Assembly (NCBI GenBank): GCA_944389835.1
Contig: CALXNU010000008.1
Location: 1 to 49,124 of the forward strand
DNA from: an uncultured Succinivibrionaceae bacterium
GTDB taxonomy: Bacteria; Pseudomonadota; Gammaproteobacteria; Enterobacterales; Succinivibrionaceae
DNA length: 49,124 nucleotides
Direction: 5' to 3'
The first letter of the stretch is position 1; the number at the start of each line of letters is the position of its first letter. Made by a program: the position numbers and the translations under genes. Positions 7,558-36,039 of the stretch are shown in pieces. A model generated the notes under the pieces. That model saw only the letters and a list, made by a program, of their open reading frames with translations. It had not been told where the DNA came from and searched no databases.

Positions 7558-8407
7558 AAAACACTATCATCATATGTCAAAGGCTCTAACCTATACCGCA
7601 TGTCTTGGGCCTTTTGCCATTTTGTTTTTCTTATTTCAGTTAGCCCCAATTTTATGGGTGGTAATTAATTCCTTTATTTATGAAGGTGAGTTTACCTTTG
7701 ATAACTACCGCGCAATTTGGGAGTCAGCATTTACCATGCAGGCTTTCTATAATTCCTTGTGGTTATCTTTAATTTCAAGTGTATTAGGTTTGTTAATTGG
7801 CCTTATTACCGTTAACTCTTTAAGACGAGTTCCAGGCAAGATTAGAAATGCGGTAATTGCTTTTATCAATATGAGCTCTAATTTCTCAGGAGTGCCACTT
7901 GCCTTTGCTTTTATTATCATCTTAGGTACTAATGGTGCTTTAACCTTACTTTTACGTGAGATTGGTCTTATTGATGATTTTGAGCTCTATGGTAAATGGG
8001 GTCTTTTGGCAATTTACACTTATTTTCAGATCCCACTTTCTGTTTTGCTTCTCTATCCTGCTTTTGACTCTTTAAAAGATGAGTGGCAAGAGGCCGCAGC
8101 TTTACTTGGTGCTTCAATTTGGCAATACGTTTATAAAGTAGCTCTGCCAATTTTAACCCCAGCTATGATTGGTACTTTTGTAATTTTAATTGCCAACGCT
8201 ATGGGAGCTTACGCTAGTGTCTATGCCTTAACTACAGGTAATTACAATGTAATCACCATTCGTATCGCAGCTTTGGTATCAGGCGATATTTTCCTAGAGC
8301 CAAATTTAGCTGCCGCTATCTCTGTGGTGTTAATGCTGATTATGGCCTTTATCGTCATGATCAATTACACGGTATTAAATAGGTCACGTTATGCAAAGAA
8401 ACAATAA
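7550..8407 (+). CDS. ABC transporter permease 1
   Basis: A 285-residue inner-membrane permease of the binding-protein-dependent type. About six hydrophobic segments are visible, and the cytoplasmic EAA loop reads EWQEAAALLGASIWQYVYKVALPIL, the site that contacts the ATPase. I chose the GTG at 7550 because AAAAGGAG at 7536-7543 is six bases upstream; an ATG at 7520 is in frame but has no comparable ribosome binding site. It overlaps the hydrolase gene (eight bases) and the second permease (17 bases). It should pair with the next gene to form the channel. Confidence 0.87.
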   Translation: MVKKHYHHMSKALTYTACLGPFAILFFLFQLAPILWVVINSFIYEGEFTFDNYRAIWESAFTMQAFYNSLWLSLISSVLGLLIGLITVNSLRRVPGKIRNAVIAFINMSSNFSGVPLAFAFIIILGTNGALTLLLREIGLIDDFELYGKWGLLAIYTYFQIPLSVLLLYPAFDSLKDEWQEAAALLGASIWQYVYKVALPILTPAMIGTFVILIANAMGAYASVYALTTGNYNVITIRIAALVSGDIFLEPNLAAAISVVLMLIMAFIVMINYTVLNRSRYAKKQ

Positions 8408-9173: not shown

Positions 9174-10183
9174 GTTACGTTGTAGTACAGAATTTAGCCA
9201 AATCATTTGGCGATACTTTAGTCTTTTCAAATATTAATTTCACTATTGAAAAAGGTGAGTTTATTACTTTATTAGGACCTTCTGGCTGCGGCAAATCAAC
9301 CTTATTACGTTGTATCGCAGGCTTAAATTCAGTCTCAGATGGTCATATTATGGTTGAAGGTCAGGAGATCACCGACTTACCACCACAAAAGCGTGGTATT
9401 GGTATGGTTTTCCAAGCCTATGCTCTCTTTCCTAATATGACAGCTAAAGAGAATATTGCCTTTGGTCTTAAAATTCGTGGTGAAGACAAAGAATTAATTG
9501 AGAAAAAGGTCAAAGAAGTAATTGAGATTGTAGAGTTACAGGGCAGAGAAGATCACTTAATTGATGAGTTATCAGGTGGTCAAAGACAAAGAGTGGCACT
9601 TGCTCGCGCTTTAGTTACTCGTCCTCGTATCTTATTTTTAGATGAGCCTTTATCTGCTTTAGATGCCAAGATTAGAAAGCGCCTTCGTTATTTAATTCGT
9701 CAAGTACAAAAAGATATGGGCTTAACCACTATTTTCGTAACGCACGATCAAGAAGAGGCGATGGTAATGTCAGATCGTATTTTCTTGATGAATGCAGGAA
9801 ATATTGTACAGTCTGGCACCCCTGATGAAGTTTATACTCGTCCACAAAATGAGTTTGTGGCAGGATTTATGGGCAATTACAACATTGTCAATGAAGCTTT
9901 AAGCCGCGATTATTTTGGGACAACTTCTGGTTTGAAAACAGCAGTGCGCCCTGAGGCGATTTTCATTAATGAAAAGGCACAAGGGGTGGAGTGTACTGAA
10001 AAAGCAGTACCTGGCAAGATTATTTTCAAACAACTTTTAGGTAATGTCATGCGCTATAGCGTTGATACTAAAGGTGCTGAGTTTAGTGTTGATGTTTTAA
10101 ACTCTAATGAGCAGATCTATAACGAAGGCGATGAAGTAAAGCTTTACTTTACTAAATCTGAGATCAATGAGCTTAGAGCATAG
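9170..10183 (+). CDS. ABC transporter ATP-binding protein
   Basis: A 337-residue ATPase that powers the two permeases. Walker A GPSGCGKST is at residues 36-44. The Q-loop is VFQAYALFP, the signature LSGGQRQRVALARAL, Walker B RILFLDEPLSALD, and the H-loop TIFVTHDQEE. A C-terminal regulatory TOBE-like part contains AVRPEAI. The set matches the iron/spermidine/AEP/molybdate-type import ATPases. The start overlaps the end of permease 2; the HAD gene begins eight bases downstream. Confidence 0.92.
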   Translation: MSYVVVQNLAKSFGDTLVFSNINFTIEKGEFITLLGPSGCGKSTLLRCIAGLNSVSDGHIMVEGQEITDLPPQKRGIGMVFQAYALFPNMTAKENIAFGLKIRGEDKELIEKKVKEVIEIVELQGREDHLIDELSGGQRQRVALARALVTRPRILFLDEPLSALDAKIRKRLRYLIRQVQKDMGLTTIFVTHDQEEAMVMSDRIFLMNAGNIVQSGTPDEVYTRPQNEFVAGFMGNYNIVNEALSRDYFGTTSGLKTAVRPEAIFINEKAQGVECTEKAVPGKIIFKQLLGNVMRYSVDTKGAEFSVDVLNSNEQIYNEGDEVKLYFTKSEINELRA

Positions 10184-34100: not shown

Positions 34101-35087
34101 ATGTATCAGCATCTAACTGACAAAAATCTGGCCCTTGATTTAGTACGTGTAACTGAGGCCGGAGCTTTGGCTGCTGCTCACTATTTTGGTAAGGGTGATA
34201 AGGAAGCAGCAGATGGCGCAGCTGTTGATGCCATGCGTATTGCCTTTCAAGGTTTACATATTCGTGGCACCGTAATTATTGGTGAAGGTGAGAAAGATCA
34301 TGCTCCAATGCTCTACAACGGTGAGAGTGTCGGTTTTGGTGATGGTCCTGAAGTAGATGTTGCAGTAGATCCAGTTGAAGGAACCTCTGCGGTAGCAAAT
34401 GGACGTTTAAACGCCGTATCAGTAGTGGGTGTGGCTCAAAAAGGAAGCATGTTTAATCCAGGCCACAGCTTCTATTGCAAGAAGATTGCAGTAGGTCGTG
34501 AAGCTGCAGGAGTTATTGATTTAGATGCTCCAGTTAAAGATAACTTAATGAAGATTGCCCGCGCCGTTGGTAAGCCAATTACTGAGGTCAACGTCTTTGT
34601 TTTAGACAAGCCACGTCACAAGAAGTTAGTTCAAGACATTAGAATGGCTGGTGCTAGAGTTAACTTACACAATGATGGTGATGTCGCAGGTGCCTTAATG
34701 GCAGTAGATCCAAGATCTCATATCGATCTTCTCATCGGAACTGGTGGCACTCCTGAGGCAGTTATTACTGCTTGTGCTATTAAAGGCTCAGGTGGTCAAA
34801 TTTTAACTCGTTTAGATCCACAAACTGAAGAAGAGAGAAGACGTCTTATTGAAGATGGTATTGATCTAAATGTCATTCGTGGCGTAGATGATTTAATTAC
34901 CTCAGATCAGTGCTTCTTTGCTGCAACTGGTGTTTCAGAAGGTGAGGTGTTATCAGGTGTTCAGTATCAAGGTGAATATGCTATCACCACTTCTTTAACT
35001 ACTCGTGGTAGAACTGGCACCATGCGTTATATTCAAGCTTGGCACAATCGTAAGAAGTTAGCTAAGATGAGTACTATTCTCTATTAG
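34101..35087 (+). CDS. glpX: Fructose-1,6-bisphosphatase class II
   Basis: A 328-residue enzyme of gluconeogenesis that converts fructose 1,6-bisphosphate to fructose 6-phosphate. The class II motifs are present: VIIGEGEKDHAPML, DVAVDPVEGTSA, and LIGTGGTPEAVITACAIKGSGGQ. Length is near E. coli GlpX (336). The ATG has CAGGAG upstream. It stands alone here, not in a glycerol operon. A decayed copy of its last 50 bases and terminator lies 195 bases downstream. Confidence 0.95.
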   Translation: MYQHLTDKNLALDLVRVTEAGALAAAHYFGKGDKEAADGAAVDAMRIAFQGLHIRGTVIIGEGEKDHAPMLYNGESVGFGDGPEVDVAVDPVEGTSAVANGRLNAVSVVGVAQKGSMFNPGHSFYCKKIAVGREAAGVIDLDAPVKDNLMKIARAVGKPITEVNVFVLDKPRHKKLVQDIRMAGARVNLHNDGDVAGALMAVDPRSHIDLLIGTGGTPEAVITACAIKGSGGQILTRLDPQTEEERRRLIEDGIDLNVIRGVDDLITSDQCFFAATGVSEGEVLSGVQYQGEYAITTSLTTRGRTGTMRYIQAWHNRKKLAKMSTILY

Positions 35088-35113
35088 TTTGAAAATATAG
35101 TATGTAAAAAAAG

Positions 35114-35137
35114 AAGGCTCCTTAAGGGGCCTTTTTA
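35114..35137 (+). terminator. Terminator of glpX
   Basis: AAGGCTCC at 35114-35121 pairs with GGGGCCTT at 35126-35133 (one G-T pair) across TTAA, followed by TTT. The A-run before the stem is also typical. Confidence 0.85.
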
Positions 35138-35281
35138 GTATCTTATATAAGCGCTCATCTTTGACAGTTTCTAAGCTTAAAGCGTTTAACATCAATAAGA
35201 TACATTTTTTAAATGTAGCTATGTCTATGATAAGCTCTTAAGATGGCAAAAACTTTTGACATTGTGGTATCCGCTAGATTT

Positions 35282-35356
35282 AAGCTTGGCACAATCGTAA
35301 GAGGTTTATTTTAGATGAGTACTATTCTTTATAATTTTGAGAATATAGAAAAAATG
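35282..35356 (+). pseudogene. Remnant of glpX 3' end (second copy)
   Basis: This stretch repeats the last codons of glpX and its 3' untranslated part, with substitutions and a small change of length that breaks the frame. No start or upstream homology is present, so it cannot encode a functional protein. Confidence 0.7.
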
Positions 35357-35380
35357 AAGGCTCCTCGTGGAGCCTTTTTA
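35357..35380. terminator. Bidirectional terminator shared by the repeat copy and the SieB-like gene
   Basis: AAGGCTCC at 35357-35364 pairs perfectly with GGAGCCTT at 35369-35376 across TCGT, followed by TTT on the plus strand. On the minus strand the stem is followed by CATTTTTT, which suits the SieB-like gene ending at 35398. Confidence 0.8.
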
Positions 35381-35397
35381 GCATCGTTTAGAAGATC

Positions 35398-36039
35398 TTA
35401 AGCAACTTTTGCAGCAGCTTGAGTTTGATTCTCTTTAGCATTTAAAAGTGAGCCTTGGCCACGATAGGATTTAACAATGATAGTATCGCGGGCAAATCCA
35501 GGGCGACTTTGCATAATTTGGCTAATTTGCTCGTCATCCATCTTAGAGCGTGAAAGACCAATAGATCTATAGGTGATAAATGGACGGGCTTCTTTTGAAA
35601 TCATGAATAAACCTTTATTTTCATTCTCTGTATCATTAGAGGTTAAGGTTAAGATGCCACTGTCTAATAAAGAGTTGACGGTTGGCTCATCTAAAGGTAA
35701 TTCAAGAACGTTACGTCTTTGTAAGACGAACTCACGAAGTAAAGCCTTTTCTGAAAAATCTAAAGTAGAGACGGTTTTTAGCATGTAGTTTTCAGTCTTT
35801 TTCACATGGGTCTTAGTGAAAATTAAGCTAGTTAAAGCAATTAAACCGCGGCTTATAAAAAGTGAAGACTCGATAATGAGAGCTAAATATAAATAAAATT
35901 TCTTACCTTCAATTTTGGCAGCAAGCTCAGGAGATAAAGACTCCAAAGGTAAAAAGAGCATTAATAAAGTTAAGATTAATAACCATAACATGGCAATATT
36001 AAGAAGTTTGGTAAGCTTATTTTCGATGCTAGTATTCAT
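35398..36039 (-). CDS. SieB-like (superinfection exclusion B family) membrane protein
   Basis: A 213-residue protein with two N-terminal membrane segments (about 15-32 and 47-73) and a cytoplasmic C-terminal part. The segment LDFSEKALLREFVLQRRNVLELPLDEPTVNSLLDSGIL resembles the SieB superinfection-exclusion family as I recall it. The lambda SieB protein blocks growth of infecting phages, but many chromosomal relatives have no tested function. No phage genes surround it. Its ribosome binding site is weak (GGGG). The call is from recalled pattern only; a generic membrane protein is the alternative. Confidence 0.5.
   Translation of the reverse strand: MNTSIENKLTKLLNIAMLWLLILTLLMLFLPLESLSPELAAKIEGKKFYLYLALIIESSLFISRGLIALTSLIFTKTHVKKTENYMLKTVSTLDFSEKALLREFVLQRRNVLELPLDEPTVNSLLDSGILTLTSNDTENENKGLFMISKEARPFITYRSIGLSRSKMDDEQISQIMQSRPGFARDTIIVKSYRGQGSLLNAKENQTQAAAKVA

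What the first reader, a model, noticed from the sequence alone, without database searches (positions are those of the whole stretch)
35035..35385. Decayed duplicate of the glpX tail and terminator
Blocks of 20 and 16 identical bases plus the terminator stem recur in the same order 247 bases downstream, with about 140 unrelated bases between. It looks like the remnant of a tandem duplication or of an insertion between repeats later reduced. The second terminator now serves the convergent SieB-like gene, so a copied terminator may have been recruited.
Basis: seen in the sequence. Interest (0 to 1): 0.5.

Follow-up and report, generated by a model that had tools for sequence, protein, structure and literature searches.

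The report
Fossil footprint of a jumping gene
The repeated end of the glpX gene is most likely the worn scar of a mobile element that, unusually, copied about 130 bases of its landing site when it jumped in and later crumbled to a stub; it is an instance of a known but unexplained oddity.

Summary
The repeat is real: window 35022-35153 (last 66 nt of glpX, 3' UTR, terminator) recurs at 35269-35396, 104 of 127 aligned bases identical, far above chance. The "unrelated" spacer holds one end of an insertion sequence: a profile built without it finds 35157-35227 at E 5.9e-11, and a terminal-repeat match begins at 35154, where copy 1 ends. The same end sits at contig breaks in this genome and a relative. 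IS1634-family transposases match in 56 of 56 family genomes searched. Of the copies tested, 18 are flanked by clean, locus-specific direct repeats of 30-740 bp; 0 of 28 other IS loci in three of those genomes are. In this genome a recent insertion with a related end appears to have split feoB-associated from fur, leaving a 111-bp, 99% repeat. None of 17 relatives shows a second glpX tail.

Best reading: an old IS1634-type insertion made a ~130-bp target duplication, then decayed to ~114 bp. Each gene kept its own copy, so no terminator needed recruiting. Known kind; the mechanism of the long duplication was called unexplained in 2008.

The parts
34101..35087 (+). glpX, class II fructose-1,6-bisphosphatase; intact, its last 66 nt lie in copy 1
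   Evidence: ORF; Pfam FBPase_glpX E 2.6e-126
35022..35153 (+). Copy 1 of the decayed long target-site duplication: end of glpX, 3' UTR, terminator
   Evidence: Alignment with 35269-35396, 104 of 127 aligned bases identical; outer limits approximate
35111..35136 (+). Terminator-like hairpin of glpX (copy 1)
   Evidence: Scan; fold -15.3 kcal/mol on +, -8.3 on -
35154..35267 (-). Remnant of an IS1634-family element, about 114 bp. The left end, 35154-35229, is of the type found downstream of a transposase, so the lost transposase would have read on the - strand (inferred)
   Evidence: nhmmer E 5.9e-11 for 35157-35227; 82% to G000:C29:2-72; terminal-repeat matrix at 35154, rank 6 of about 98,000 window positions, both strands
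35249..35267 (-). Possible decayed opposite terminal repeat of the element (not established)
   Evidence: Matrix score at 35267 reached by 2.2% of window positions: inconclusive
35269..35396 (+). Copy 2 of the decayed long target-site duplication; coding frame broken
   Evidence: Alignment and three-frame translation
35357..35376 (-). Terminator-like hairpin of copy 2, facing the SieB-like gene
   Evidence: Scan; fold -13.6 kcal/mol on -, -15.3 on +
35398..36039 (-). Convergent gene with a SieB domain
   Evidence: ORF; Pfam SieB PF14163 E 3.8e-26; a similar convergent gene follows glpX in 7 of 17 relatives

Best explanation
The repeat is the decayed long target-site duplication of an IS1634-family insertion sequence. 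The element inserted at the glpX 3' end. Its two ends joined target strands about 130 bp apart, and gap filling copied that stretch to both sides. The element was later deleted internally to about 114 bp and the two copies drifted to 82% identity. Because tail and terminator were copied whole, glpX kept an intact end on the left and the convergent SieB-like gene kept a terminator on the right. Shown: the repeat, the IS end in the spacer, long duplications by this IS family in this bacterial family, and a probable recent case in the same genome. Inferred: that this particular pair arose in one insertion, the order of decay, and the use of both terminators.
For: The spacer carries an IS end: profile built without it, E 5.9e-11; 82% to C29 over 71 nt; terminal-repeat match starts where the copy-1 homology ends. 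The end type occurs just downstream of an IS1634-family transposase in L190 (score 42 against 27-38 for 20 shuffled spacers). 18 clean direct repeats of 30-740 bp flank IS1634 copies in relatives, 17 re-read in wider stretches and 100% identical between copies; cross-locus null maximum 29 in 112 pairs; 0 of 28 rve-type IS loci show it. Own-genome case: C105 and C29 carry a 111-bp 99% repeat beside IS ends and between genes that lie together in 6 of 6 relatives searched. 0 of 17 relatives show a second glpX tail (two hold under 800 nt downstream).
Against: The second terminal repeat is only a weak match (2.2% of window positions reach its score). No intact element with exactly this end is held: L190 is distant and has no long repeat itself. 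Of the 11 IS1634 matches in the window's own genome only C118 has a long flanking repeat, and that one contains tRNA-Phe; several others stop at contig ends. 37 of 54 copies tested show no long repeat, the 5 G001 (same-genus) copies tested among them. The C105-C29 junction lies in an assembly gap. The two glpX copies are only 82% alike, so identity cannot show a single event.
Confidence: 0.88

Rival explanations
1. A plain tandem duplication of the glpX tail and terminator (slippage or unequal crossing-over) came first; an IS inserted later between the copies and decayed.
For: The two copies are in direct orientation and only 82% alike, so their common origin cannot be dated against the insertion.
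Against: Needs two independent events at one junction, with the IS end starting where copy 1 ends. This IS family makes repeats of this size in one step, and a 111-bp repeat of another gene tail accompanies a related end in the same genome.
Confidence: 0.07
2. The repeats are attachment sites left by a site-specific integrative element that entered at the glpX 3' end and restored the gene end.
For: A duplicated gene tail on both sides of foreign DNA, with the gene left intact, is what such elements leave (established knowledge).
Against: The foreign DNA matches an IS end, not an integrase element; 0 of 17 relatives show a second tail there; glpX search of viral contigs and spacer/locus searches of phage and plasmid records found nothing.
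Confidence: 0.02
3. Copy 2 is a kept regulatory RNA or 3'-UTR-derived small RNA rather than debris.
For: The hairpin stem is intact in both copies, although loop and one stem base differ.
Against: No Rfam family reaches its gathering score, the scan finds no promoter-like site in the spacer, and mismatches lie throughout the copy. The hairpin is explained by its place at the end of the SieB-like gene.
Confidence: 0.03

Closest known systems
IS1634 (Mycoplasma mycoides) and IS1549 (Mycobacterium smegmatis), IS1634 family
   Same: Same transposase family model (NF033559) and the same habit of long, variable direct repeats; 8-514 bp is quoted in PMC2266710 (passages).
   Different: Elements with clean repeats here are mostly about 2.0-2.7 kb against 1.5-2.0 kb given as typical; the longest repeat seen here is 740 bp. 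The glpX copy is a remnant without a transposase.
Ordinary IS1634-family elements with short repeats, e.g. ISGka5
   Same: Same family; many copies in the same genomes show no long repeat.
   Different: 5-6 bp repeats (PMC2266710, PMC8024623, passages), not about 130 bp. I did not measure 5-6 bp repeats here.
Integrative elements that duplicate a gene 3' end at attachment sites
   Same: Duplicated gene tail on both sides of inserted DNA, gene left intact.
   Different: No integrase gene seen at the locus, and each repeat is unique to its locus among the sequences held.

Membership tests
IS1634-family insertion (at the glpX locus) | IS1634-family transposase between the ends | tested here: not met
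   The spacer is about 114 bp with no ORF; the element is at most a remnant. 11 family matches lie elsewhere in the genome.
IS1634-family insertion (at the glpX locus) | One end homologous to an IS1634-family element end | tested here: met
   nhmmer E 5.9e-11; link to a transposase through L190
IS1634-family insertion (at the glpX locus) | Both terminal inverted repeats at the borders of the target duplication | tested here: inconclusive
   35154: 0.006% of window positions score as high; 35267: 2.2%
Long target-site duplication of the IS1549/IS1634 kind | Direct repeats well over the 5-6 bp of the family, abutting the element, locus-specific | tested here: met
   About 130-bp repeat abuts the remnant; the family does this in relatives
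Long target-site duplication of the IS1549/IS1634 kind | Empty site in relatives (one tail only) | tested here: met
   0 of 17 relatives show a second tail. These are other species, so it is not a same-species empty site; two loci hold under 800 nt.
Integrative element attachment sites | Integrase element, or the same duplication at the same gene in relatives | tested here: not met
   0 of 17 relatives show a second tail; no ORF in the spacer

The most novel reading that the evidence does not exclude
One clade of large IS1634-family transposases in Succinivibrionaceae often joins its two ends to target strands tens to hundreds of base pairs apart (30-740 bp, beyond the 514 bp quoted in 2008). 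Insertions therefore copy whole gene tails and terminators. Landing at a gene end can leave both neighbours intact, and decayed insertions leave paired tails and terminators such as the pair at glpX.
Probability: 0.6. Interest if true: 0.6.

Novelty: new member of a known kind. Interest (0 to 1): 0.45.

Why it matters
A small 'decayed duplicate' turns out to be a readable fossil of an unusual transposition reaction. A 2008 review of the family says that no mechanistic model had been proposed for its long, variable target duplications (PMC2266710, passages). All 56 Succinivibrionaceae genomes searched match the family model, and transposase groups with and without long repeats occur side by side. 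That makes the question testable by comparing transposases. It also warns annotators that paired gene tails or paired terminators can be IS footprints rather than evolved regulation.

Tried and rejected
Tandem duplication of a 247-bp unit: the spacer is not similar to glpX upstream of the repeat or to anything else in the window. IS630/mariner identity: the TA after several G016 ends first suggested it; dropped, because 2 of the 6 G016 ends lack TA (C41, C1) and the terminal repeats fit the IS1634 copies. Own-genome C118 repeat (128/129 bp, 94%, around an IS1634 fragment) looked like an intermediate stage; it contains tRNA-Phe on both sides, so tandem tRNA genes are an alternative and I do not count it. 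Rfam: only matches below gathering scores. Viral-contig, phage and plasmid searches: nothing. In the family search with the spacer, 6 of 56 genomes matched at E 0.01 or better: the own genome, G016, and four with only short stretches of 19-39 nt, which I did not interpret. Target preference for gene 3' ends: 6 of 17 repeats hold one against 2.1 expected, terminators 2 against 1.1; suggestive only, since survival of harmless insertions would give the same. Dropped from the count of long repeats: L221 (repeat start also in L219 and L220, so probably inside the IS), L241 (94%, ragged, reaches the edge of the fetched stretch) and L258 (C118, tRNA). L271 was fetched but not tested; L200 was left out (contig edge). 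The tree is a quick FastTree with midpoint root; branch support was not examined and the clade was read by eye. One search printed five minus-strand loci (L005, L006, L007, L014, L015) on the wrong strand; the relatives' count comes instead.

Full report
What is there. glpX (34101-35087, +) ends in a hairpin at 35111-35136. The convergent SieB-domain gene (35398-36039, -) faces it, and a P-II gene follows. The last 66 nt of glpX, its 3' UTR and its hairpin recur at 35269-35396. Local alignment scores 124 against a maximum of 31 in 500 shuffles, and 104 of 127 aligned bases match, with two gaps. Copy 2 has in-frame stops. Both hairpins still fold, at -15.3 kcal/mol each on the + strand and -8.3 (copy 1) and -13.6 (copy 2) on the - strand.

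The spacer. It resembles nothing else in the window. A search of the own genome with the wider locus, however, brought up the first bases of another contig, G000:C29. With the spacer as query the match is 82% over 71 nt, E 7e-12. In the family search (56 genomes) the spacer also matched five contig starts of one relative, G016, at 71%. Using that end as query gave six contig starts in G016, 100% alike over 72-74 nt, followed by unrelated sequence. Repeats that break assemblies and have one sharp edge are what IS ends look like. A profile built from the C29, G016 and G052 (L190) ends, without the spacer, finds window 35157-35227 at E 5.9e-11; apart from the training ends and copies of this same window region, the next hit is E 0.08.

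Which IS. NF033559 (IS1634 family) matches in 56 of 56 genomes of the family searched, over the cut-off in 50, and 11 times in the window's genome. Among the IS1634 loci compared the spacer matched only L190 (G052:C82), where the end lies just downstream of the transposase (score 42; 20 shuffled spacers over 50 of those loci reached 27-38). A terminal-repeat matrix from 18 ends gives 35154 (+) a score reached by 0.006% of window positions, at the edge of the copy-1 homology. The opposite end at 35267 is weak, 2.2%. So one end is established and the other is only possible.

Does this IS family make such repeats here? In one search I aligned the flanks of 54 IS1634 copies from G053 (closed), G020, G009, G001 and G000. 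17 scored 58 or more and the other 37 scored 32 or less; 112 cross-locus pairs gave at most 29. I dropped three of the 17: L221 (repeat start also in sister copies), L241 (ragged) and L258 (tRNA-Phe on both sides). One search tested 40 loci, partly the same ones, and added four clean cases (98, 95, 91, 30 bp). The 18 clean repeats run from 30 to 740 bp, and by their first and last 30 bases none recurs at another place among the sequences held. Re-read in wider stretches, 17 of 17 are 100% identical between copies. As a control, 28 of 30 rve-type IS loci in G053, G020 and G009 were testable, and none exceeded score 28. In a quick tree of 66 transposases, read by eye, 17 of the 18 clean repeats fall among 32 tips of one clade, which also holds L190; the other 34 tips include one, of 38 bp. 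Many copies, 15 tips of that clade among them, show no clean long repeat; rearrangement, contig ends and partial copies may explain some, but I did not test that. In the window's own genome only C118 of the 11 matches has a long repeat, the ambiguous tRNA case, and L190 itself has none.

A recent case in the same genome. G000:C105 ends and C29 begins in IS-end sequence, and both carry a 111-bp, 99% repeat of the tail of a small gene. That gene resembles the FeoB-associated Cys-rich family, below Pfam's cut-off. The C105-type end also closes C14 and lies near the end of C80. The neighbour on C105 is a Fur-family gene. In 6 of 6 relatives searched, a similar small Cys-rich gene lies beside it on the same strand. 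So an element with an end related to that in our spacer most likely split this pair recently and copied 111 bp of a gene tail, which is the glpX picture before decay. The junction itself lies in an assembly gap.

Relatives at glpX. Of 17 family loci, none shows a second tail within 800 nt (L037 and L040 hold less), and seven have a SieB-like gene convergent to glpX. The duplication is thus confined to the window's lineage in this sample.

How it most likely happened. An IS1634-type element joined its ends to the two target strands about 130 bp apart, and fill-in copied the stretch. Copy 1 stayed with glpX and copy 2 with the SieB-like gene, so both kept a terminator. Later the element lost its interior and copy 2 lost its reading frame. 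That the insertion made this repeat is inferred from the family's behaviour; the order of decay and the terminator use are inference without transcript data.

Known or new. PMC2266710 (passages read) gives 5-6 bp repeats as usual for the family, 8-514 bp for IS1549 and IS1634, and says no mechanistic model had been proposed. PMC8024623 (passages) has 6 bp for ISGka5. The original IS1634 paper I saw only as a title in a reference list (PMC11004492); passages of PMC3053259 on IS1634 do not treat repeat length. Searches for IS1634 with Succinivibrio found 0 papers; IS1634 with 'long direct repeats' found 2, neither on this family; a broader search on Succinivibrionaceae, insertion sequences and target site duplication listed 10 of 340 papers, none of which holds the family name. 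This library is partial, so I say only that these searches did not find it described. The glpX feature is a fossil of a known kind; the wealth of cases in this bacterial family is the more useful result.

Noticed in passing
L258 (G000:C118) 381-508 and 1790-1918: A 128/129-bp direct repeat at 94% holding a tRNA-Phe gene on each side of an IS1634-family transposase fragment: either tandem tRNA genes or another long target duplication that copied a tRNA gene.
   Followed up: partly
L174 (G000:C105 end) and L035 (G000:C29 start): A probable recent IS1634-type insertion between a fur-family gene and a feoB-associated gene, with a 111-bp 99% repeat on the two contig ends.
   Followed up: yes
L241 (G053:C1:2385812-2392128): About 800 bp at 94% flank an IS1634 copy at 4.5 kb spacing; ragged, perhaps an old or nested insertion with a very long repeat.
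   Followed up: no
L324, L325, L331 (three G009 loci): Three separate IS copies in one genome have clean repeats of 95 bp each, with different sequences; chance or a preferred length is open.
   Followed up: no
window 34101-35087 and L052-L073: This glpX protein is 58-63% identical to Desulfovibrionaceae-type copies, while several family members carry only a copy about 41-43% identical: two glpX types within one bacterial family, perhaps by transfer.
   Followed up: no
window 7664-7694 and 9233-9263: A 31-nt direct repeat at 81% with 1569-base spacing; not examined, possibly chance.
   Followed up: no
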